Source: Pseudonocardia sp. T1-2H
Lineage (GTDB): Bacteria > Actinomycetota > Actinomycetes > Mycobacteriales > Pseudonocardiaceae
NCBI RefSeq assembly: GCF_038039215.1
Contig: NZ_JBBPCL010000001.1
Location: 5,332,001-5,396,000 of the forward strand
DNA length: 64,000 bases
Direction: 5' to 3'
How positions within the stretch are numbered: the stretch's first letter is position 1; every line of letters starts with the position of its first letter. The notes beneath the pieces are model-generated. The model ran no database searches. It saw nothing but the letters and a program-made list of their open reading frames with translations, and was not told where the DNA came from. Below are positions 8,781-44,441 of this stretch, one piece after another. The position numbers were made by a program, and so were the translations under genes.

Positions 8781-8987
8781 GTGCCTGCTCCGGCCCGCCC
8801 GGACCACCCGTGCGCGGGAACCGGCTGGCTGTTCGCGTTCTTCGTGCTCACGGTCGTCGGCCCGGTCCTGGTGCCGGCCTACCTCGCGACGCTCACCCGG
8901 CTCGTCGTCGCCGTGGCCCGGACCCGGGACCGGACGCGTCAGAACAGACGCAGGTCCTTCGACTCCGTGCCCCGCAACGCGTCGTAG
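8781..8987 (+). CDS. Possible 68-residue single-pass membrane peptide
   Basis: A GTG-started reading that occupies most of the ~200-bp interval between two minus-strand genes. It has a strongly hydrophobic stretch ([20 protein letters not shown], about residues 16-35) and then an Arg-rich tail. There is no good ribosome site, and the last 49 bases overlap the 3' end of nucS. The hydrophobic pattern is the only support; it may be chance. Confidence 0.22.
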
Positions 8988-9598
8988 TCCACCGTCACGC
9001 AGCGGATCCCGCGGTCCTCGGCGAGCGTCCTCGCCTGCGGCTTGATCTGCTGCGCGGCGTAGACGCCGGCTACCGGCGCCAGCAGCGGGTCCCGGTTCAT
9101 CAGCTCGAGGTAGCGGGTCAGCTGCTCGACGCCGTCGATCTCCCCGCGCCGCTTGATCTCGACGGCGGCGTGGCCGCCCTGGCCGTCCCGGCACAGCAGG
9201 TCGACGGGACCGACGGCCGTCATGTACTCGCGGCGGACCAGCGTCCACCCTTCGCCGAAGGTCTCCGGATGGGCGGCGAGCAGCTCCTGCAGGTGCGCCT
9301 CGACGCCGTCCTTGACCAGGCCGGGATCGACGCCGAGCTCGTGGCGCGAGTCGTGCAGCACCTCGTCGATGGTGATGACGAGGGACTCGTCCGCCTTGTT
9401 CTTCACCGTCCAGACCCCGGGCTGCTCCTCGAGCCAGCACGGTGGGCTCATCCAGTTCAGCGGCTTGTAGGCGCGGTCGTCCGCGTGGATGCTCACCGAA
9501 CCGTCCGCCTTGACCAGCAACAACCGGGGCGCCATGGGCAGGTGGGCCGTCAACCGGCCGACGTAGTCCACCTGGCAACGGGCGATGACGAGGCGCAC
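8939..9598 (-). CDS. nucS: Mismatch-specific endonuclease NucS
   Basis: 219 residues. NucS (EndoMS) cuts both strands at G-T, G-G and T-T mismatches and is the basis of the non-MutSL mismatch repair of actinobacteria and archaea. The N-terminal DNA-binding half (from [15 protein letters not shown]) precedes a PD-(D/E)xK nuclease core with GPVDLLCRD and [16 protein letters not shown] (about residues 140-170). The short C-terminal DLRLF tail is the type that contacts the sliding clamp. The start is a GTG at 9598. The same gene is near murA, the epimerase and the thiolase in mycobacteria, so its presence here fits ancestral synteny. Confidence 0.95.
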
Positions 9599-9663
9599 CC
9601 GCGCCACCTTAGGGGTGCGCCCGGCACGGCCCGTCACCCGGAGGTGGCGCCCGGCCGCCGCGG

Positions 9664-10660
9664 TCAGCGGGGCGCGTTCCGTTCCGCGAGGGCCCGGCCC
9701 GCGGACGCGAGGGCCGTCCGCAGCTCCGGCGGATCGAGCGCCTCGACCTCCCCGCCCAGCCCGGTGAGCTGCCCGGCGGCGACCGCCACGGACTCCACGT
9801 CCACGGTCAGCTCCCGCCACCCGTCGACGTCCGGTGGTCCGGCCCGGGCGATCGCCGCGGTCGCCGCGTCCGGGTCGACAGCGTGCGGGAGGGCGCGCAG
9901 GCCGCGCGGGGAGAGCCGCACGGTCACCTCCTCCCGCAGCATGGACGCGGCGAACCGGGCCGCCGAACCGGCCCACCAGGGCCCGAGGTCGAAGTCGTCG
10001 GGGCGGGCGAAGGTCTCCTGCTCGAGCTCGGCATGCCGGATCCGGGAGGCGCGGTAGGTGCGGATGTCGCCGTCCCGGCCGGACAGCTCGACGCCGGCGA
10101 CGACGTACCAGACGCCGGCCTTCAGGACGAGTCCCAGCGGCGCGACGAGCCGCTCCACCGTCGTCGGGTCCCGATAGCCGCGGGCGTAGTGGATCCGGGC
10201 CCGTCGCTGCTCCCAGACGCCCTGGGCGAGCGTCGCGAGCTGCGTGACCTCGGCGGGCGCGTGGAACCAGCCGGGGGCGTCGAGCAGCACCCGTTCGGAG
10301 ACGACGCGGGCGTGCTCGCGCAGCCCCTCCGGCAGCGTGGCCAGCACCTTCGCCTGCGCCGCGACCAGCGCCGAGCTCGATGCCGAGCTCCGCGAGCACA
10401 TGCGGCGCGCCCATCGCCAGCATCGCCGCCGCCTCGGAACCGGTGAGGCCGTCGAGCCGGGTGCGCCAGCCGTCGACGAGCCGGATGCCCCCGCCCGGCC
10501 CGGGCTCGGTCCAGACCGGCACCCCGACCTCGATCAGCGCGGCGACGTCCCGGTAGATCGTCCGCTCCGAGACCTCCAGCTCGGCGGCGAGCTGCCCGGC
10601 CGTGGCCGCCCGTCGTCGCTGCAGGACGAAGAGCAGGGCCATCAGGCGGGAGGCGCGCAC
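9664..10660 (-). pseudogene. HTH/WYL-domain transcriptional regulator, frameshifted
   Basis: An N-terminal DeoR-type winged helix-turn-helix ([20 protein letters not shown], about residues 20-45 from the GTG at 10660) is in one frame to about position 10373. The rest, from [10 protein letters not shown] on, is in another frame and contains the WYL-type ligand-binding domain ([13 protein letters not shown]) and the C-terminal WCX-like region. Joining the two frames restores a normal ~330-residue YafY-type regulator. Unlike the other splits in this window, this one is not in a long homopolymer; it lies in the repetitive GAGCTCGGC region at about 10369-10385. It may be a true mutation or a base-call error. 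Regulatory target unknown. Confidence 0.7.
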
Positions 10661-10687
10661 GCAGGCATGATCCCGCAGATCCACCGC

Positions 10688-10852
10688 GACTCGCGCGGCT
10701 TCAGACCCCGACTCGCGCGGCTTCAAATCCCGACTCGCGCGGCTTCAAATCCCGACTCGCGGAGGTTCCGGGATCGCCCGCGAGTCGGGGCAAGAGAACC
10801 CGCGAGTCGCGATCTGGCGCCGCGCGAGTCGGGGGCTGGGGCCGCACGAGTC
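10688..10852. repeat. Head-to-head array of 22-bp repeats (4 + 4 units)
   Basis: The core GACTCGCG starts at 10688, 10710, 10732 and 10754, exactly 22 bp apart. The reverse complement CGCGAGTC (last copy CACGAGTC) starts at 10779, 10801, 10823 and 10845, again exactly 22 bp apart. Units 1-3 also share the flanking GCGGCTTCA. The two half-arrays are mirror images about a centre near 10770. They fill the gap between phaC and the WYL regulator, both on the minus strand. Transcription through it would give a long imperfect hairpin. A related six-unit array lies at 26783-26900. No cas genes or spacers are present. Confidence 0.85.
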
Positions 10853-10883
10853 GAGCCTCGGAGCGGGTGGGTCGGGCGGCAGG

Positions 10884-12580
10884 TCAGGCCTGGGCGAGGA
10901 CGTAGGTGCCCGGGGCGTCGCCGAGGGAGGGGTGCTCCTTGCTCCCGGGCGGGCGGGGGCGCGCTTGAGGGGACCCGAGCGCTCCCCGATCCAGCCCGCC
11001 CAGTGCTCCCACCAAGTGCCCTCGTGCCCCGTCGCCTGGTCCCGCCAGGTGGTCGCGTCGATGCCGTGTGGCTCCGGGCCCGTCCAGTACCGGGACTTCG
11101 GGTTCCCCGGCGGGCACACGAGGGTCTGGATGTGCCCGGTGTTCGTGAGCACGAACGTGGAGTCGCCGCCGAGCAGGGTCGCCGAGGCGTAGCAGCCGTT
11201 CCACGGGGTCAGGTGGTCCGTGGTGCCACCGGTGATGTAGGCCTCGACCTTCACCTGCTTGAGGTCGACGGGCGAGCCCAGCACGGTGAGCTCGCCGGGC
11301 CTCGTCATCGAGTTGCGCGCGAACACGTCGAGGAACTGCCGGTGCAGGGCCGCCGGCAGGTTCGTCCCGTCGGCGTTCCAGGCGAGGATGTCGAACGACG
11401 GGGGCTCCTTGCCGAGCAGGTAGTTGTTGACCCAGTAGTTCCACACCAGGTCGTCCGGCCGCATCCAGGTGAACACCGAGGCGAGCGAGCGGGCGTCGAG
11501 GATCCCGACCTGCCGGGACCGGAAGTCCGCGATCCCCACGATGGGCCCGGCCGCCAGCATCCCGATCGGCGCCTCCGCGCCCCAGTCCAGGAGGGTGACG
11601 CCGAAGCTGACGCTGCGCACCCGGTCCTGCCCGGTGTCCGCGAGGTGGTTGAGCACCACCGCCGTGGTGATGCCGCCTGCGCAGAGCCCGAACAGGTTGA
11701 CCTGCTCCGAGCGGGTGATCGCGGAGACGGCGTCGAGCGCGGAGAGGATCGCGCGGCCGTAGGTGTCCAGGTCCCAGTCCCGCTGGACCTTCGTCGGGTT
11801 GCGCCACGAGATCGCGAACGCCTGCTGCCCCTGGGACACCGCGTACTCGATCAACGAGCGGCCGGGGGCGAGGTCCATGAAGTAGTACTTGTTGATCTGC
11901 GGCGGTACCACCACCAGCGGGATCTCCCGGACCTGCGTCGTCGAGGGCTGGTACTGGATCAACTCCAGCACCTCGTCGCGGTAGACGACGGCGCCCGGCG
12001 TCACGGCCAGGTCCTCGCCGACGCGGAACTTCGACCGGTCGACCTGCGTGGGCAGTCCGCCGTTGCGCCGGACGTCGGAGAGGAAGTTGCGCAGCCCGCG
12101 GCGCAGGCTCCCGCCCCCGGTCTCCAGGGCCCGCTTCAGGGCGACCGGGTTGGCGAGGGTGTTGGTGGGCGACAGCGTGGACGTGATCACCGTGGCCAGG
12201 AACTTCGCCCGCTCGCGGTCCCGCCAGTCCGGCAGGTCCGCGGCCGACACGACGTCCCCGACGGCCTGGCACGTGGCCAGGTAGGCCTGCATCAGCCGGT
12301 GGTAGCCCGGGTTCTCGGTCCAGGTGGTGTCGGCGAAGCGGCGGTCCCGCTTGCCGGGCTCGATCTCGGACCGCCCGACGGCCACCCGCCCGAGCTCGCC
12401 GGCGAGACGGCCCGCGGCGCCGGCCACGGACGGCACGTTGCCGACCACCCTCGCCGCCGTGCCGAGCAGGCTGCGCACCCCCTCGAGGGCCTGGGGCTGA
12501 GCCGTCGGCTCCGGCGGCTCCTGCCCGGGTCGCAGCGGTCGTACCCGGGCCGAACTGGTTCCCGAACGCTGCGTGGTCAT
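10884..12580 (-). CDS. phaC: Class I poly(3-hydroxyalkanoate) synthase (apparent frameshift near 3' end)
   Basis: About 566 residues after correction. PhaC polymerises 3-hydroxyacyl-CoA into PHA granules. The lipase-like box is FGLCAGG with the nucleophilic Cys; the Asp and His of the triad are in GGTTDHLTPW and NTGHIQTL. The region PPQINKYYFMDLAPGRS is characteristic. The start is the ATG at 12580 with GAGGTGG upstream. The main frame continues into the repeat array as meaningless sequence. A +1 frame from about position 10944-10959 gives the expected end APGTYVLAQA and stops at 10884, so one base is probably missing in the G/C run there. Thiolase and hydroxybutyryl-CoA dehydrogenase nearby could supply substrate; no phaB is seen. 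Confidence 0.9.
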
Positions 12581-20258: not shown

Positions 20259-21197
20259 ATGCTGCGCATCGCGGGACTGCCCGTACCCGGCCCCGGGGAC
20301 CTCGTCGCCGGAGCCGTCGACGGCGTGAAGGCGCTCGCGGGCTGGACGGAGGACGCGGTCGGCGTGGCCGCCTCGCTGCCGGAGCGCGCCACCGCCCTGC
20401 TCGACGACGTGTCGGGGCTGGTCGGGCGGATCGGCGGGATCGCCGAGCGGGTCGAGACCCTGCTGGACCGGGTCGAGGGGGTCGCGGAGCGGGCCGAGGG
20501 GCTGGTCGGACGGGTCGACGTCGTCGCCGGGGAGGCCGAGACGATGGTGACGCGCATCGCCGTCGTGGCCGGTGACGCGGAGGTCATCGTCGGCGGGGCC
20601 CGCACCGTGGCCGACGGCGCCGCCACGCTCGTCGCGCGGGCGTCGCTCGTCGCGGACGAGGCGGCGGGGCTGGTCGGACGGGCCGGTCAGGTCGCGGACA
20701 GCGCGGCCGGGGTGGTCGCGGGCGCGGCCGAGGTGGCCGCCGAGGCGAGGAGCCTGGTCGGCAGCGCGGGAGGGGTCGCGGGCGAGGCGTCGGGCGTCAT
20801 CGAGAAGGCGGCCGCCGTCGCGGACCTCGCGCGCGGCGTCGTCGAGGAGGCCTCCGGGACGAGCTCGGCGGCGAGCGAGCTGCTCGACACCTACGCCCCC
20901 CTGGCCAAGCGTGCGGCGCCGCTGGCCACGAGGTTCGTCGACGAGTTCTCCGAGCAGGAGCTGCAGGCCGCGATCCGGATGGTCGACCAGCTGCCGGCGC
21001 TCACGAACCAGCTCGAGACCAGCATCATGCCGATCCTCGTGACGCTGGACCGGGTCGGCCCGGACGTCCACGAGCTCCTCGACGAGCTGCGCGGAGTCCG
21101 GATGGCGATCAACGGCATCCCGGGCTTCACGTTCTTCCGCCGCCGCGGCGAGGAGAGGGACGAGGAGAACGGCGGCCGCCAGCCGGACAGGGGGTAG
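20259..21197 (+). CDS. Protein with ten tandem 14-residue amphipathic repeats
   Basis: 312 residues. After a 57-residue lead, residues 58-197 are ten consecutive 14-residue units with consensus [AVI]xxVAxxAxxLVxR, i.e. two heptads each. A more conserved C-terminal block follows (about 205-295: TYAPLAKRAAPLA, MPILVTLDRVGPDVHELL, AINGIPGFTFF), then a charged tail. There is no signal peptide and no membrane segment. I recognise the C-terminal block from actinobacterial proteins that are sometimes mislabelled as RuBisCO large subunit; no catalytic features support that. An amphipathic helical rod could bind a lipid, membrane or PHA-granule surface, as phasins do, but this is inference. ATG start with GGAGAGG upstream. 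Confidence 0.82.
   Translation: MLRIAGLPVPGPGDLVAGAVDGVKALAGWTEDAVGVAASLPERATALLDDVSGLVGRIGGIAERVETLLDRVEGVAERAEGLVGRVDVVAGEAETMVTRIAVVAGDAEVIVGGARTVADGAATLVARASLVADEAAGLVGRAGQVADSAAGVVAGAAEVAAEARSLVGSAGGVAGEASGVIEKAAAVADLARGVVEEASGTSSAASELLDTYAPLAKRAAPLATRFVDEFSEQELQAAIRMVDQLPALTNQLETSIMPILVTLDRVGPDVHELLDELRGVRMAINGIPGFTFFRRRGEERDEENGGRQPDRG
20430..20849 (+). repeat. Ten 42-bp coding repeats (14 residues each)
   Basis: In-frame array encoding residues 58-197 of the protein above. Units begin IGGIAERVETLLDR, VEGVAERAEGLVGR, VDVVAGEAETMVTR and continue without gap or phase change to AAAVADLARGVVEE. Nucleotide identity between units has diverged although the residue pattern is kept, suggesting an old expansion under protein-level selection. 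Confidence 0.85.
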
Positions 21198-26145: not shown

Positions 26146-26745
26146 TCACGTCGTCCCGGCCTGCGGGCCCCCCGGCTGCCACAGCACGTCGCCGTCCGGG
26201 TTCGCGGCCCGGCCGAGGATGAACAGCAGGTCCGAGAGCCGGTTGAGGTACTTGGCCGTGAGCGGGTTGGTCTGCTCGGCGTCCACCTCGAGCAGCGCCC
26301 ACACCGTCCGCTCGGCCCGCCGGGCGACCGTCCGGGCCACGTGCAGGTACGCCGCGCCGGGGGTCCCGCCGGGCAGGATGAAGGACGCGAGCTTCGGCAG
26401 GTCCTCGTTGAACTCGTCGCACCAGGCCTCGAGCCGGGTGACGTAGTCCTCGGTGATCCGCAGCGGCGGGTACTCCGGCTGTTTCGGATCATCCGGGGCG
26501 ACGATCGGGGTGCACAGGTCCGCACCGACGTCGAAGAGGTCGTTCTGCACCTGCGCGAGGGGCACGAGCAGCCGGTCGGAGAGCCCACCCACGGTGACCG
26601 CGAGCCCGACGGCGGCGTTGCACTCGTCGGTGTCCGCGTAGGCCGCGAGCCGGGTGTCCGTCTTCGGGACCCGGCTGAAGTCCCCCAGCGCGGTGGTCCC
26701 GGCGTCGCCGGTCTTCGTGTAGATCCTGGTCAGGTGCACGGCCAT
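26146..26745 (-). CDS. Cob(I)yrinic acid a,c-diamide / cob(I)alamin adenosyltransferase (PduO type)
   Basis: 199 residues. It transfers adenosyl from ATP to cob(I)alamin to make coenzyme B12. The N-terminal [14 protein letters not shown] motif binds ATP, and the central region around [36 protein letters not shown] and [14 protein letters not shown] is diagnostic for the PduO/MMAB trimeric family. Its product is needed by ethylmalonyl-CoA mutase (21.2 kb) and other mutases. The same gene sits beside murA in mycobacteria. A 22-bp repeat array lies immediately upstream of its start. Confidence 0.93.
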
Positions 26746-26782: not shown

Positions 26783-26900
26783 GGCTCGTGCGGCTCCGAA
26801 CCGCGACTCGCCCGGCTCAAGAGCGCGACTCGCGCGGCCTGAGAGCGCGACTCGCCCGGCTCGAGAGCGCGACTCGCGCGGCCTATGAGCGCGACTCGCG
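26783..26900. repeat. Array of six 22-bp direct repeats
   Basis: GACTCGCG-type cores begin at 26783 (variant GGCTCGTG), 26805 (last base C), 26827, 26849 (last base C), 26871 and 26893, every step exactly 22 bp. Between cores the sequence alternates GCCCGGCTC and GCGCGGCCT flavours. All units point the same way, unlike the head-to-head array at 10688-10852, with which it shares core and period. It fills the gap between DUF2550 (stop at 26905) and the adenosyltransferase start (26745). Confidence 0.85.
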
Positions 26901-26904
26901 GGGT

Positions 26905-27339
26905 CTAGGAAGCTTGGCGGTAGCCGGTGGAGCGGCCGGGCGGGGCGGCCTCGAGCCAGGAGAGGAAGCCCGTGAGCACGTCCCGGGACATCGCGAACTC
27001 GATGTCCTCGCCGTGGCTGCGGCAGCGCAGGACCGCGGCCGCGTACGGGATCGCGAAGGACTCGGACGCCAGCGGTTCGCGCCGGTCCACGATCTCGACC
27101 TCGGTGCGGTCGATCGCGACGGACGCGCCGACCCGGAAGCTCGTCAGCCGGTACCAGGCGAACTGGTCACCCTGGTAGCGGCCGACGCCGAAGTGCCAGT
27201 CCTCGACAGCGAAACGGCGGCGCAGACACAGGTCCACGCCGCCGCCCCGCATGAGTCGTACCCGCCGGATCGCGAGCCAGCCCAGCAGGAGACACGCGCC
27301 CAGCAGCAGGACGCCGACGACGAGTGCCACGGTCCCCAC
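26905..27339 (-). CDS. DUF2550 family membrane protein
   Basis: 144 residues from the GTG at 27339. One N-terminal transmembrane helix (about residues 4-23) is followed by a cytoplasmic domain of about 110 residues with RRFAVEDWHFGVGRYQGDQFAWYRLTS-type sequence, typical of DUF2550. This family is regularly the last gene of the actinobacterial ATP synthase cluster (Rv1312 in M. tuberculosis). It starts 16 bp after atpC. Role unknown; linkage suggests a membrane-associated function but not necessarily in ATP synthase. Confidence 0.85.
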   Translation of the reverse strand: MGTVALVVGVLLLGACLLLGWLAIRRVRLMRGGGVDLCLRRRFAVEDWHFGVGRYQGDQFAWYRLTSFRVGASVAIDRTEVEIVDRREPLASESFAIPYAAAVLRCRSHGEDIEFAMSRDVLTGFLSWLEAAPPGRSTGYRQAS

Positions 27340-42191: not shown

Positions 42192-44441
42192 TCAGTCGTC
42201 GTCGTTCTTGGTGTTGCCGGGGGTCGTCTTGGCCACCTGCATCAGGAACTCGATGTTCGTGCGCGTCTTGCGCAGCTGGCCGAGCACCAGGTCGATGGCC
42301 TGCTGGTGGTCCAGCGCCGAGAGCACCCGGCGGAGCTTGACGCTCACCGCGAACTCGTCCGGCGACATCAGCAGCTCCTCCTTGCGGGTGCCGGAGGCGT
42401 CGACGTCGATGGCCGGGAAGACCCGCTTGTCGGCGATCTTGCGGTCGAGCTTGAGCTCGGCGTTGCCGGTGCCCTTGAACTCCTCGAAGATCACCGTGTC
42501 CATCGTCGAGCCGGTCTCGACCAGCGCGGTGGCGAAGATGGTCAGCGAGCCGCCGTCCTCGATGTTGCGCGCCGCGCCGAGGAAGCGCTTCGGCGGGTAC
42601 AGCGCCGTCGAGTCGACACCACCGGAGAGGATCCGGCCCGACGCGGGGGCGGCCAGGTTGTAGGCGCGGCCCAGGCGGGTGATCGAGTCCAGCAGCACGA
42701 CGACGTCGTGCCCCATCTCCACCAGGCGCTTCGCCCGCTCGATGGCGAGCTCGGCGACCGCGGTGTGGTCCGACGGCGGGCGGTCGAAGGTCGAGGCGAT
42801 GACCTCGCCCTTCACCGATCGCTGCATGTCGGTGACCTCCTCGGGCCGCTCGTCGACCAGGACGACCATGAGGTGGCACTCGGGGTTGTTGGTGGTGATC
42901 GCGTTGGCGATCGACTGCAGCACCATCGTCTTGCCGGCCTTGGGCGGCGAGACGATCAGCGCGCGCTGCCCCTTGCCGATAGGCATGACCAGGTCGATCA
43001 CGCGGGTCGTGAGCTTCGTCGGCTCGGTCTCGAGCCGCAGGCGCTCGTTCGGGTACAGCGGGGTGAGCTTGGTGAACTCCGGGCGGCTGCGCCCGTCCTC
43101 CGGGCTGCCGCCGTTGAGGGTGTCGATGCGCACCAGCGGGTTGAACTTCTGCCGCGACTGCTCGCCCTCGCGGGCCTGCCGGACGGCGCCGGTGATCGCG
43201 TCACCGCGGCGCAGGCCGTACTTGCGGACCATCGACAGGGACACGTAGACGTCGTTCGGGCCGGACAGGTAGCCGGTGGTCCGGACGAACGCGTAGTTGT
43301 CCAGGATGTCCACGATGCCGGCGACGGGCAGGAGCACGTCGTCGTCGCGGACCTCGGTGTCGACGTTGTTCGCGCCGCCCTGGCCACGGCCGCCGCCGCC
43401 GTCACGGTCCCGACCGCGGCGACGGTCCCGGAAGCGGCGCCCGCGGCGGCCGCGGCCGTCACCGTCGTCGTCCGAGTCGTCCATCCGGTCGTTGTTGCGG
43501 TCATTGGTGCGGTCGTTGGTGCGGTCGTTGGTGCGGGCCGCGCGGTCGTTGCGGTTGTCACCGCGGTTGTTACCGCCGCCGCGGTTGTCGTCGCGGCCGC
43601 CGTCCCGGTCCCCGCGGTCGCCACGGTTGTCCCGGTCGCCACGGTTGTCCCGGTCGCCACGGTTGTCCGTGCGGTCGCCCCGGGCGTTGCCGTCCGTGCG
43701 CTCGCCACGGTTGTCGTTGCGGTTGCGGTTGCCGCGACCGCTCGAGTCGCGCTCGACCTTCTCCGGGGTGGCGGCCGCGGCGGCCGCGGCGATCTCCGCG
43801 CTCTCCGCGGCGCTCACCGAGCCGTTCTGCTCGCCGCCGCGACGACGGGTCTGCCGGCGACGGCCGCCCTCGTTCTCAGCGGGCGCCGCGGTCTCGGCGG
43901 GGACCCCGGAATCCGCGGGGGTGTCGTTCGACGTGCCCGCGACCTGCGGGGACTCGACGGGCGCGTTGTCGTCGGACGACGTCGCGGCCGGGGCGGCGCT
44001 CGTGGGAGCGGCCGGCTCGGGCGTCGTGGTCTGGGTGTCGGTGCCGTTCACCGTGGCCGGCGCACCGGCCGGGCGGGTCGCCGCGCGACGACGGCGCGCC
44101 GGCTTCTCGGCGGGGGCCTGCTCGACGGCCGGCGGGGTGCCGGCGTCGGCGGCAGCCGACTTGTCGGCGGGGGCGGGCTTCTCGGCGGGCGCGTCCAGGG
44201 GCAGCTGGTCCGTCGCGGCCTTGCGGCCACGGGCGGGCGCGGTGCCGCCTCCCTGACGCTCCTTGATCGCAGAGATCAGGTCGCCCTTCCGCATCCCGGC
44301 GATGTCGGGGATGTTCAGCTCGCCCGCAAGTTGACGCAGGTCCGCGAGGACCATGCCGGACAGCCCGCCACGCCGCTTGGGCGCTGGGCTGTCCTCCGCC
44401 GGTGCGGCGGTCTGGGTGCTGACGAGATCGGTCTCGCTCAC
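42192..44441 (-). CDS. rho: Transcription termination factor Rho with long disordered insert
   Basis: 749 residues from the GTG at 44441 (AGGAAGG upstream); E. coli Rho has 419. An N-terminal LADLRQLAGELNI-type Rho-N helix domain (about 30-70) is followed by ~300 residues of low-complexity sequence: first Ala/Pro-rich, then Arg/Asp/Asn/Gly-rich (NRGDRD and NDRT repeats). The RNA-binding domain follows (VAGIVDILDNYAFVRTTGY, about 360) and the ATPase has Walker A SPPKAGKTMVLQ. Such inserts are known in high-GC actinobacteria, where they strengthen RNA binding on GC-rich transcripts. Confidence 0.95.
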   Translation of the reverse strand: MSETDLVSTQTAAPAEDSPAPKRRGGLSGMVLADLRQLAGELNIPDIAGMRKGDLISAIKERQGGGTAPARGRKAATDQLPLDAPAEKPAPADKSAAADAGTPPAVEQAPAEKPARRRRAATRPAGAPATVNGTDTQTTTPEPAAPTSAAPAATSSDDNAPVESPQVAGTSNDTPADSGVPAETAAPAENEGGRRRQTRRRGGEQNGSVSAAESAEIAAAAAAATPEKVERDSSGRGNRNRNDNRGERTDGNARGDRTDNRGDRDNRGDRDNRGDRGDRDGGRDDNRGGGNNRGDNRNDRAARTNDRTNDRTNDRNNDRMDDSDDDGDGRGRRGRRFRDRRRGRDRDGGGGRGQGGANNVDTEVRDDDVLLPVAGIVDILDNYAFVRTTGYLSGPNDVYVSLSMVRKYGLRRGDAITGAVRQAREGEQSRQKFNPLVRIDTLNGGSPEDGRSRPEFTKLTPLYPNERLRLETEPTKLTTRVIDLVMPIGKGQRALIVSPPKAGKTMVLQSIANAITTNNPECHLMVVLVDERPEEVTDMQRSVKGEVIASTFDRPPSDHTAVAELAIERAKRLVEMGHDVVVLLDSITRLGRAYNLAAPASGRILSGGVDSTALYPPKRFLGAARNIEDGGSLTIFATALVETGSTMDTVIFEEFKGTGNAELKLDRKIADKRVFPAIDVDASGTRKEELLMSPDEFAVSVKLRRVLSALDHQQAIDLVLGQLRKTRTNIEFLMQVAKTTPGNTKNDDD
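43535..43700 (-). repeat. Degenerate coding repeats in the Rho insert
   Basis: On the plus strand the units TTGTCCCGGTCGCCACGG recur with an 18-bp period (about 43624-43675), encoding repeated NRGD/RD residues. A second set at about 43501-43541 repeats TCGTTGGTGCGG every 12 bp, encoding NDRT. Both keep the reading frame. This kind of short in-frame repeat is prone to length change. Confidence 0.7.

What the first reader, a model, noticed from the sequence alone, without database searches (positions are those of the whole stretch)
10688..10852. Mirror-image array of 22-bp GACTCGCG repeats
Four cores at 10688, 10710, 10732, 10754 and four inverted cores at 10779, 10801, 10823, 10845 are each spaced by exactly 22 bp, two turns of B-DNA. 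All sites within each half therefore face the same side of the helix. The mirror symmetry about 10770 suggests a protein assembly site or an RNA hairpin ladder and not random GC-rich sequence. It sits between phaC and a WYL regulator. I know of no named actinobacterial element with this design.
Basis: partly seen in the sequence, partly recalled or inferred. Interest (0 to 1): 0.7.

Follow-up and report, generated by a model that had tools for sequence, protein, structure and literature searches.

The report
Phased DNA repeats at gene ends
Some soil bacteria related to Pseudonocardia carry many short arrays in which one 8-letter DNA word recurs about every 22 letters just after genes end; the word and its spacing are kept while the letters in between change fast, so the arrays look like landing strips for a protein that has yet to be identified.

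Summary
The mirrored array is real (7 of 8 cores exact) and belongs to a dispersed repeat family. GACTCGCG pairs at exactly 22 bp occur 128 times in this genome (control 0) and in 39 of 62 same-genus genomes; three-core arrays occur in 30 of 297 genomes of a family sample and 2 of 394 of a class sample (counts include the window's genome). Arrays sit just after stop codons (47 of 58 nearest a 3' end) and in 16 of 29 convergent, 24 of 130 tandem and 0 of 48 divergent gaps examined. Facing cores in relatives are 22-27 or 33-38 bp end to end (123 of 131), one helical turn apart; 28-32 is nearly empty. Against a relative with 96% identical flanks, core is kept while unit number and spacers turn over. 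No REP transposase accounts for them. The RNA hairpin is very stable, but its halves pair no better than permuted halves. Best reading: helically phased, iteron-like binding arrays for an unidentified DNA-binding protein at gene ends, perhaps a boundary. Binder and function are inferred. The papers listed in my searches do not describe it.

The parts
10688..10761 (+). Plus half of the array: four exact GACTCGCG cores (10688, 10710, 10732, 10754), period 22
10779..10852 (-). Minus half: CGCGAGTC at 10779, 10801, 10823 and one-mismatch CACGAGTC at 10845, period 22
10754..10786 (.). Dyad centre: innermost facing cores, 33 bp end to end, within the 33-38 bp mode seen in relatives
10884..12478 (-). 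phaC (PHA synthase). The conserved C-terminus ending at 10884 lies in a shifted frame; the array begins 31 bp after that stop codon
9664..10401 (-). WYL/WCX-domain gene on the other side; its N-terminal part appears to read from about 10662 in another frame
26783..26900 (+). Second array of the family in the window: six units (three exact cores), 4 bp from the stop of the DUF2550 gene
26905..27339 (-). DUF2550 gene whose 3' end abuts the second array
26146..26745 (-). PduO-type cobalamin adenosyltransferase gene on the other side of the second array

Best explanation
The array is one of many chromosomal, iteron-like binding arrays. Each 22-bp unit holds a nearly invariant octamer GACTCGCG recognised on duplex DNA by an unidentified protein. 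Units repeat head-to-tail about every two helical turns and often face a second array head-to-head across a dyad whose length steps by one helical turn, so that bound subunits can touch and load cooperatively. The arrays lie just after stop codons, mostly between convergent or tandem genes; the bound assembly would act there as a boundary, for example a roadblock to read-through transcription or a barrier to transcription-driven supercoils. Shown: the family, the spacing, 3' placement, core constraint, stepwise dyad lengths. Inferred: that a protein binds, its identity, cooperativity and the boundary role.
For: Core constraint: between two exact cores 44 bp apart the unconditioned middle octamer is 97.5% (G000, n=64) and 98.7% (named loci, n=152) conserved per site, against 78% between neighbouring spacers. 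Direct spacing is exactly 22 in 106 of 108 (G000) and 312 of 346 (named loci) pairs 18-23 bp apart. Facing-core lengths, n=131: 65 at 22-27, 5 at 28-32, 58 at 33-38, 3 at 46-47 (from rows listed; 19 outer, nested pairs dropped); binomial P 1.6e-13 against a uniform 22-38 distribution, not corrected for shared ancestry. Arrays in 16 of 29 convergent, 24 of 130 tandem, 0 of 48 divergent gaps (G000); named loci 37 of 87, 60 of 297, 7 of 131; 20 G309 dyads: 14 convergent, 6 tandem, 0 divergent. Between G000 and G342 (flanks 95.9% identical) matched units keep 93.5% of core but 72% of spacer letters. The same core and period recur in other genera.
Against: No binding protein was identified. Ten sampled neighbouring genes are unrelated. 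Arrays turn over: the closest relative examined lacks the phaC array, and 0 of 20 G309 loci and 6 of 120 named loci share an array-bearing site with G000, so no single site looks essential. 23 of 62 genus genomes have no exact match, and 9 of 14 genomes searched with three mismatches allowed had none. In the named loci 13 of 49 neighbouring array pairs have the same orientation. Dyad centres in G309 are somewhat alike, so dyads of one length may partly share descent. identities are biased upward: arrays were called by their cores, and units were matched for best fit. Spacing of 21 bp occurs 26 times in the named loci. Dyad rows come from lists that stop early.
Confidence: 0.5

Rival explanations
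1. REP/BIME-like interspersed repeats without host function: units spread and expand by slippage, unequal crossing-over and conversion between arrays, and survive mainly where insertion is harmless, that is after genes.
For: Patchy occurrence (39 of 62 genus genomes; 9 of 46 genera in the family sample); genome-specific spacer types; 44-bp higher-order repeats in some arrays; unit numbers differ between orthologous arrays; an empty site in the closest relative examined; absence or rarity in divergent gaps.
Against: Neutral spread does not easily keep the octamer at 97-99% per site beside 78% spacers, nor step dyad length by a helical turn. The REP mobiliser family Y1_Tnp is in 5 of 62 genomes and absent from G000. 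No sequence common to array flanks was found; only short pieces of 28-78 bp shared by a few loci.
Confidence: 0.27
2. RNA-level element: transcripts of facing arrays fold into a long hairpin that ends transcription in both directions or protects mRNA 3' ends.
For: Window array RNA folds at -142 kcal/mol (z -9.5) and -139 on the other strand (z -8.0); placement after stop codons and between convergent genes; neighbouring arrays nearly always inverted in G000 (21 of 22 pairs within 1200 bp; 36 of 49 in named loci). One terminator-like site was found in the region, 0.1 expected.
Against: Real halves pair no better than permuted halves: minus-then-plus pairs n=8 of 10, P 0.50; plus-then-minus pairs in G309 n=20, P 0.50, and in G000 n=7, P 0.56. 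39 of 40 strand ends in G309 lack a T-rich tail. 19 of 62 arrays have no opposite array within 1200 bp. A hairpin loop gives no evident reason for the 28-32 bp gap in dyad length.
Confidence: 0.18
3. Operator array for the neighbouring WYL regulator or phaC, a local regulatory site.
For: The array lies in the phaC-WYL gap and is also present there in G343.
Against: 62 arrays in the examined parts of this genome and sampled neighbours such as ileS, panB, an acyl-CoA synthetase and an HU-like gene; the closest relative examined lacks this array.
Confidence: 0.03

Closest known systems
REP / BIME elements and their RAYT transposases (PMC2817692: abstract seen; PMC3733652: passages seen)
   Same: Short repeats in high copy, outside genes, in clusters with inverted partners, species-specific; described there as protein-binding sites with suggested roles in chromosome organisation and transcription termination.
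   Different: The unit here is a 22-bp head-to-tail repeat with one nearly invariant octamer and variable spacer, helically phased; no RAYT-type gene in this genome. In the main text of PMC3733652 the words Pseudonocardia and Actinobacteria do not occur.
Plasmid iterons (recalled; one search gave listings only)
   Same: Direct repeats of about 17-22 bp with a conserved core and period near two helical turns, bound by one protein, with inverted half-sites bound as dimers (recalled).
   Different: Dispersed over a chromosome at gene ends; no plasmid match. A Rep gene was not searched for.
MIRU/VNTR-type bacterial minisatellites (recalled)
   Same: Tandem units whose number varies between relatives at fixed loci.
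   Different: Here mainly the octamer and period are kept, spacers vary within an array, and neighbouring arrays are mostly inverted.
Intrinsic transcription terminators (recalled definition)
   Same: Inverted repeats after stop codons.
   Different: No T-tract in 39 of 40 strand ends, halves not co-adapted.

Membership tests
REP/BIME with RAYT | Cognate RAYT (Y1_Tnp) gene in genomes rich in the repeat | tested here: not met
   PF01797 in 5 of 62 genus genomes, none in G000; 3 of the 39 array-positive genomes have it (G301, G304, G338)
REP/BIME with RAYT | High-copy repeats outside genes, near gene 3' ends, with inverted partners | tested here: met
REP/BIME with RAYT | 20-40 bp palindromic unit with GTAG or CGTC tag | not tested
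   Units seen are 22-bp direct repeats; no systematic tag search was made
Iteron array | Direct repeats with conserved core spaced by about whole helical turns | tested here: met
   dyads
Iteron array | Located at a replication origin | tested here: not met
   Arrays dispersed over contig C1 at gene 3' ends; no plasmid match. The origin itself was not located
Iteron array | Linked Rep gene whose product binds the repeats | not tested
   No Rep search; flanking-protein clusters were not annotated
Intrinsic terminator | GC stem followed by T-tract | tested here: not met
   G309: 1 of 40 strand ends with 5 or more T in 8; window region: one terminator-like site, inside the array, 0.1 expected
Intrinsic terminator | Transcript 3' ends map to it | not testable with these tools
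   no RNA-seq or Term-seq available
Known structured RNA | Match to an Rfam family | tested here: not met
   five matches, all below their gathering scores

The most novel reading that the evidence does not exclude
A chromosome-wide bacterial boundary system: an unknown protein assembles head-to-tail and head-to-head on helically phased octamer arrays placed at gene 3' ends, insulating neighbouring and especially convergent transcription units, with the core co-evolving with the protein (one relative, G314, mostly uses GACTCGCC in the listed matches) while spacers are free to turn over.
Probability: 0.3. Interest if true: 0.85.

Novelty: new variant of a known kind. Interest (0 to 1): 0.66.

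Why it matters
It ties a simple, testable DNA grammar (octamer, 22-bp period, dyads that step by one turn, gene 3' ends) to an unknown binding protein in actinomycetes. If bound as predicted it would be an iteron-like assembly used at gene ends and not at an origin, and a direct way to study how bacteria separate convergent genes. The fast turnover around a fixed core is also a natural experiment on how repeat arrays evolve under selection for binding sites.

Tried and rejected
RAYT-mobilised REPs: rejected. Phage or plasmid origin: six stretches with one match each in viral contigs, not inspected further; no blastn hit in plasmids or phages (BLAST's low-complexity filter may hide repeats). 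Larger mobile element: no sequence common to array flanks, only short pieces (28-78 bp) shared by a few loci. A linked gene family: flanking proteins of 158 sources were clustered (largest cluster 16 proteins in 15 loci) but not annotated, so this stays open. Octamer as a genome-wide word: not supported, outside arrays it is near expectation (G000 21 seen, 20.8 expected; named loci 67 and 62.5; G342+G343 36 and 26.3). A fixed regulon: not supported. RNA pairing under selection: not supported. Rfam: nothing over threshold. A palindrome of about 64 bp found between some array pairs was not pursued.

Errors of mine: one search searched with a protein read in the wrong, overlapping frame of phaC; it still found orthologous loci in close relatives, and I used only their DNA. 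One search masked every core by mistake, so its zero counts are void; one search replaces it. In one search the second count (opposite core within 60 bp) is void, because a core is nearly its own complement in this genome; only the first count is used. The paper search looked for the two octamers inside any text; I saw only its list of 20 of 470 papers, whose titles are unrelated, and opened none. The representative units for the cross-genus consensus were picked by eye. Overlapping stretches (four pairs of neighbours) may count a few background gaps twice. The named loci include contigs of G343 (L044, L055, L058), so these two sets overlap.

Full report
What is there. The window region 10683-10853 holds four direct GACTCGCG cores and four inverted ones, each at exactly 22 bp; seven of the eight are exact, the last (10845) has one mismatch. 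A second array lies at 26783-26900. The window is C1:5332001-5396000 of a 6,998,239-base genome, G000. There the pattern GACTCGCG-N12-16-GACTCGCG has 62 forward and 67 reverse matches and none for the control read backwards; with exactly 14 spacer bases it is 62 and 66.

Distribution (counts include G000). The two-core pattern is in 39 of 62 genomes of the genus and 8 of 298 of an order sample. The three-core pattern is in 30 of 297 genomes and 9 of 46 genera of a family sample and 2 of 394 of a class sample, the other being G638 of another family. Eleven genus members without an exact match, searched with up to three mismatches, gave 0 in nine, 1 in G322 (control 2) and 7 in G323 (control 0); G314, with 3 exact three-core hits, gave 182 (control 1), and its listed matches mostly carry GACTCGCC. 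So occurrence is patchy, and one species seems to have shifted the core.

Place. With a simple codon-usage gene finder of my own G000 has 62 arrays in the stretches read. Arrays are in 16 of 29 convergent, 24 of 130 tandem and 0 of 48 divergent gaps; the nearest gene end is a 3' end for 47 of 58 arrays outside genes, 37 of these 47 within 40 bp; 4 were called inside genes. In 120 named loci the figures are 37 of 87, 60 of 297 and 7 of 131, with 140 of 172 nearest a 3' end and 8 inside genes. Twenty facing-core sites fetched from G309 are 14 convergent, 6 tandem, 0 divergent; one of them (L279) falls inside a called gene. Ten sampled neighbouring genes are varied: ileS, panB, an acyl-CoA synthetase, a histidine kinase, an asparagine synthase, an HU-like gene, and two without any family. 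In G000 21 of 22 neighbouring array pairs within 1200 bp are in opposite orientation; in the named loci 36 of 49. 19 of 62 G000 arrays have no opposite array within 1200 bp. Facing pairs come as plus then minus, close together (10-21 bp apart in six of seven G000 cases, one overlapping), or minus then plus, 36-399 bp apart in ten cases.

What is constrained. Taking pairs of exact cores 44 bp apart and looking at the octamer between them without conditions, 51 of 64 are exact in G000 and 140 of 152 in the named loci; per site 97.5% and 98.7%, against 78% identity between the adjoining spacers in both sets. Direct spacing is 22 in 106 of 108 and 312 of 346 pairs at 18-23 bp; 21 occurs 26 times in the named set, 23 once. 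Outside arrays the octamer is near its expected rate (G000 21 seen, 20.8 expected; G342+G343 36 and 26.3). Over 28 hand-picked units, one per genome, a second weaker box GAACG appears at positions 14-18 (61-82% per position).

Helical phasing. Facing cores (GACTCGCG then CGCGAGTC) have total lengths, over 131 innermost pairs in eleven genomes, of 22-27 (65), 28-32 (5), 33-38 (58) and 46-47 (3). These are the rows listed after dropping 19 outer, nested pairs; the lists stop early for G309, G312, G320 and G331, other genomes are not listed, and two G320 rows (C56, C207) are identical and may be one site. The seven dyads of G000 are 33-37. The sequence between the cores varies but is somewhat alike: mean identity 0.39-0.41 against 0.27-0.32 after shuffling, among G309 dyads of equal length. 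The opposite close arrangement, CGCGAGTC then GACTCGCG within 32 bases, is absent from five of eight genomes and has 7, 8 and 2 cases in the others, against 7 to 89 facing pairs in the same genomes. A one-turn step in dyad length is expected if proteins on duplex DNA must face each other; I see no reason for it in an RNA loop. Shared ancestry was not removed, so the P value is too small.

Evolution. Of 33 array loci of the relative G342, 23 match G000 array loci; of 28 of G343, 9 by the same protein rule. Unmatched ones may lie in parts of G000 that I did not read. Flanks are 95.9% and 86.6% identical. In G000-G342, 39 array pairs were matched, 27 in the same orientation (some of the rest may be the other member of an inverted pair); matched units are 93.5% identical in the core and 72% in the spacer, while random spacers of different arrays agree at 51% between these genomes. 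Both identities are optimistic, since arrays were called by their cores and units matched for best fit. Unit numbers differ, for example 13 against 3. One non-array stretch between two arrays aligned at 82%. So position and core tend to be held, spacers and copy number turn over. At the window locus G343 has a mirrored array, G342 has none, and G300 has one exact core with a degenerate neighbour. Farther away positions are mostly not kept: 0 of 20 G309 loci and 6 of 120 named loci match a G000 array locus; I did not test whether 6 exceeds chance.

RNA or DNA. The window array folds into a very stable hairpin on either strand. But real halves pair no better than permuted ones in three tests (eight of ten minus-plus pairs, twenty and seven plus-minus pairs), and 1 of 40 strand ends in G309 has five or more T in eight bases. 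One terminator-like site in the window region lies inside the array, 0.1 expected. I therefore prefer a DNA-bound protein, and treat the hairpin as a by-product of inverted copies of one consensus; it could still add to termination.

Mobility. Y1_Tnp (RAYT-type) is in 5 of 62 genomes and not in G000. No sequence common to array flanks, six single matches in viral contigs, no plasmid or phage hit.

Literature. The papers listed do not, by title and abstract start, describe this family; the lists are capped and the library is open-access only. Beyond listings I saw the abstract of PMC2817692 and passages of PMC3733652. Statements on iterons, VNTRs, terminators and the helical repeat are recalled.

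Limits. G000 seems to carry small indels against G342: phaC and the WYL gene are each frameshifted, which may be assembly error. Gene calls are mine. No binding, transcript or phenotype data exist here.

Noticed in passing
window 10884-11000 and 10380-10410: phaC and the WYL gene each appear frameshifted by one base against relative G342; assembly error or real decay.
   Followed up: partly
window 26783-26900: Second array of the same family between a PduO-type adenosyltransferase gene and a DUF2550 gene.
   Followed up: yes
L176:4281, L191:4214, L193:4247, L177:3876, L175:730: Imperfect palindrome of about 64 bp with arms like TGATCACGATCTCGGGAGC, in or near several arrays of this genome; only four weak, three-mismatch arm hits in 120 named loci.
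   Followed up: partly
genome G314: Same 22-bp architecture with core changed to GACTCGCC in most listed units, suggesting co-evolution with a binder.
   Followed up: no
L190:4077-4709: A HU/IHF-like gene has an array 2 bp after its stop; the orthologous array in G342 (L210) is mainly in the other orientation.
   Followed up: partly
window 8939-9637: Endonuclease NucS gene close to the WYL gene.
   Followed up: no
window 20414-20794 and 43383-43668: Other tandem repeats (42-bp and 18-bp periods among them) of a different kind.
   Followed up: no
G342 arrays: Two spacer types (GGTCTCAGA-like and GACCGGAAGTGCC-like), at C19:15116-15211 mixed within one array, as if units are exchanged between arrays or lineages.
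   Followed up: no
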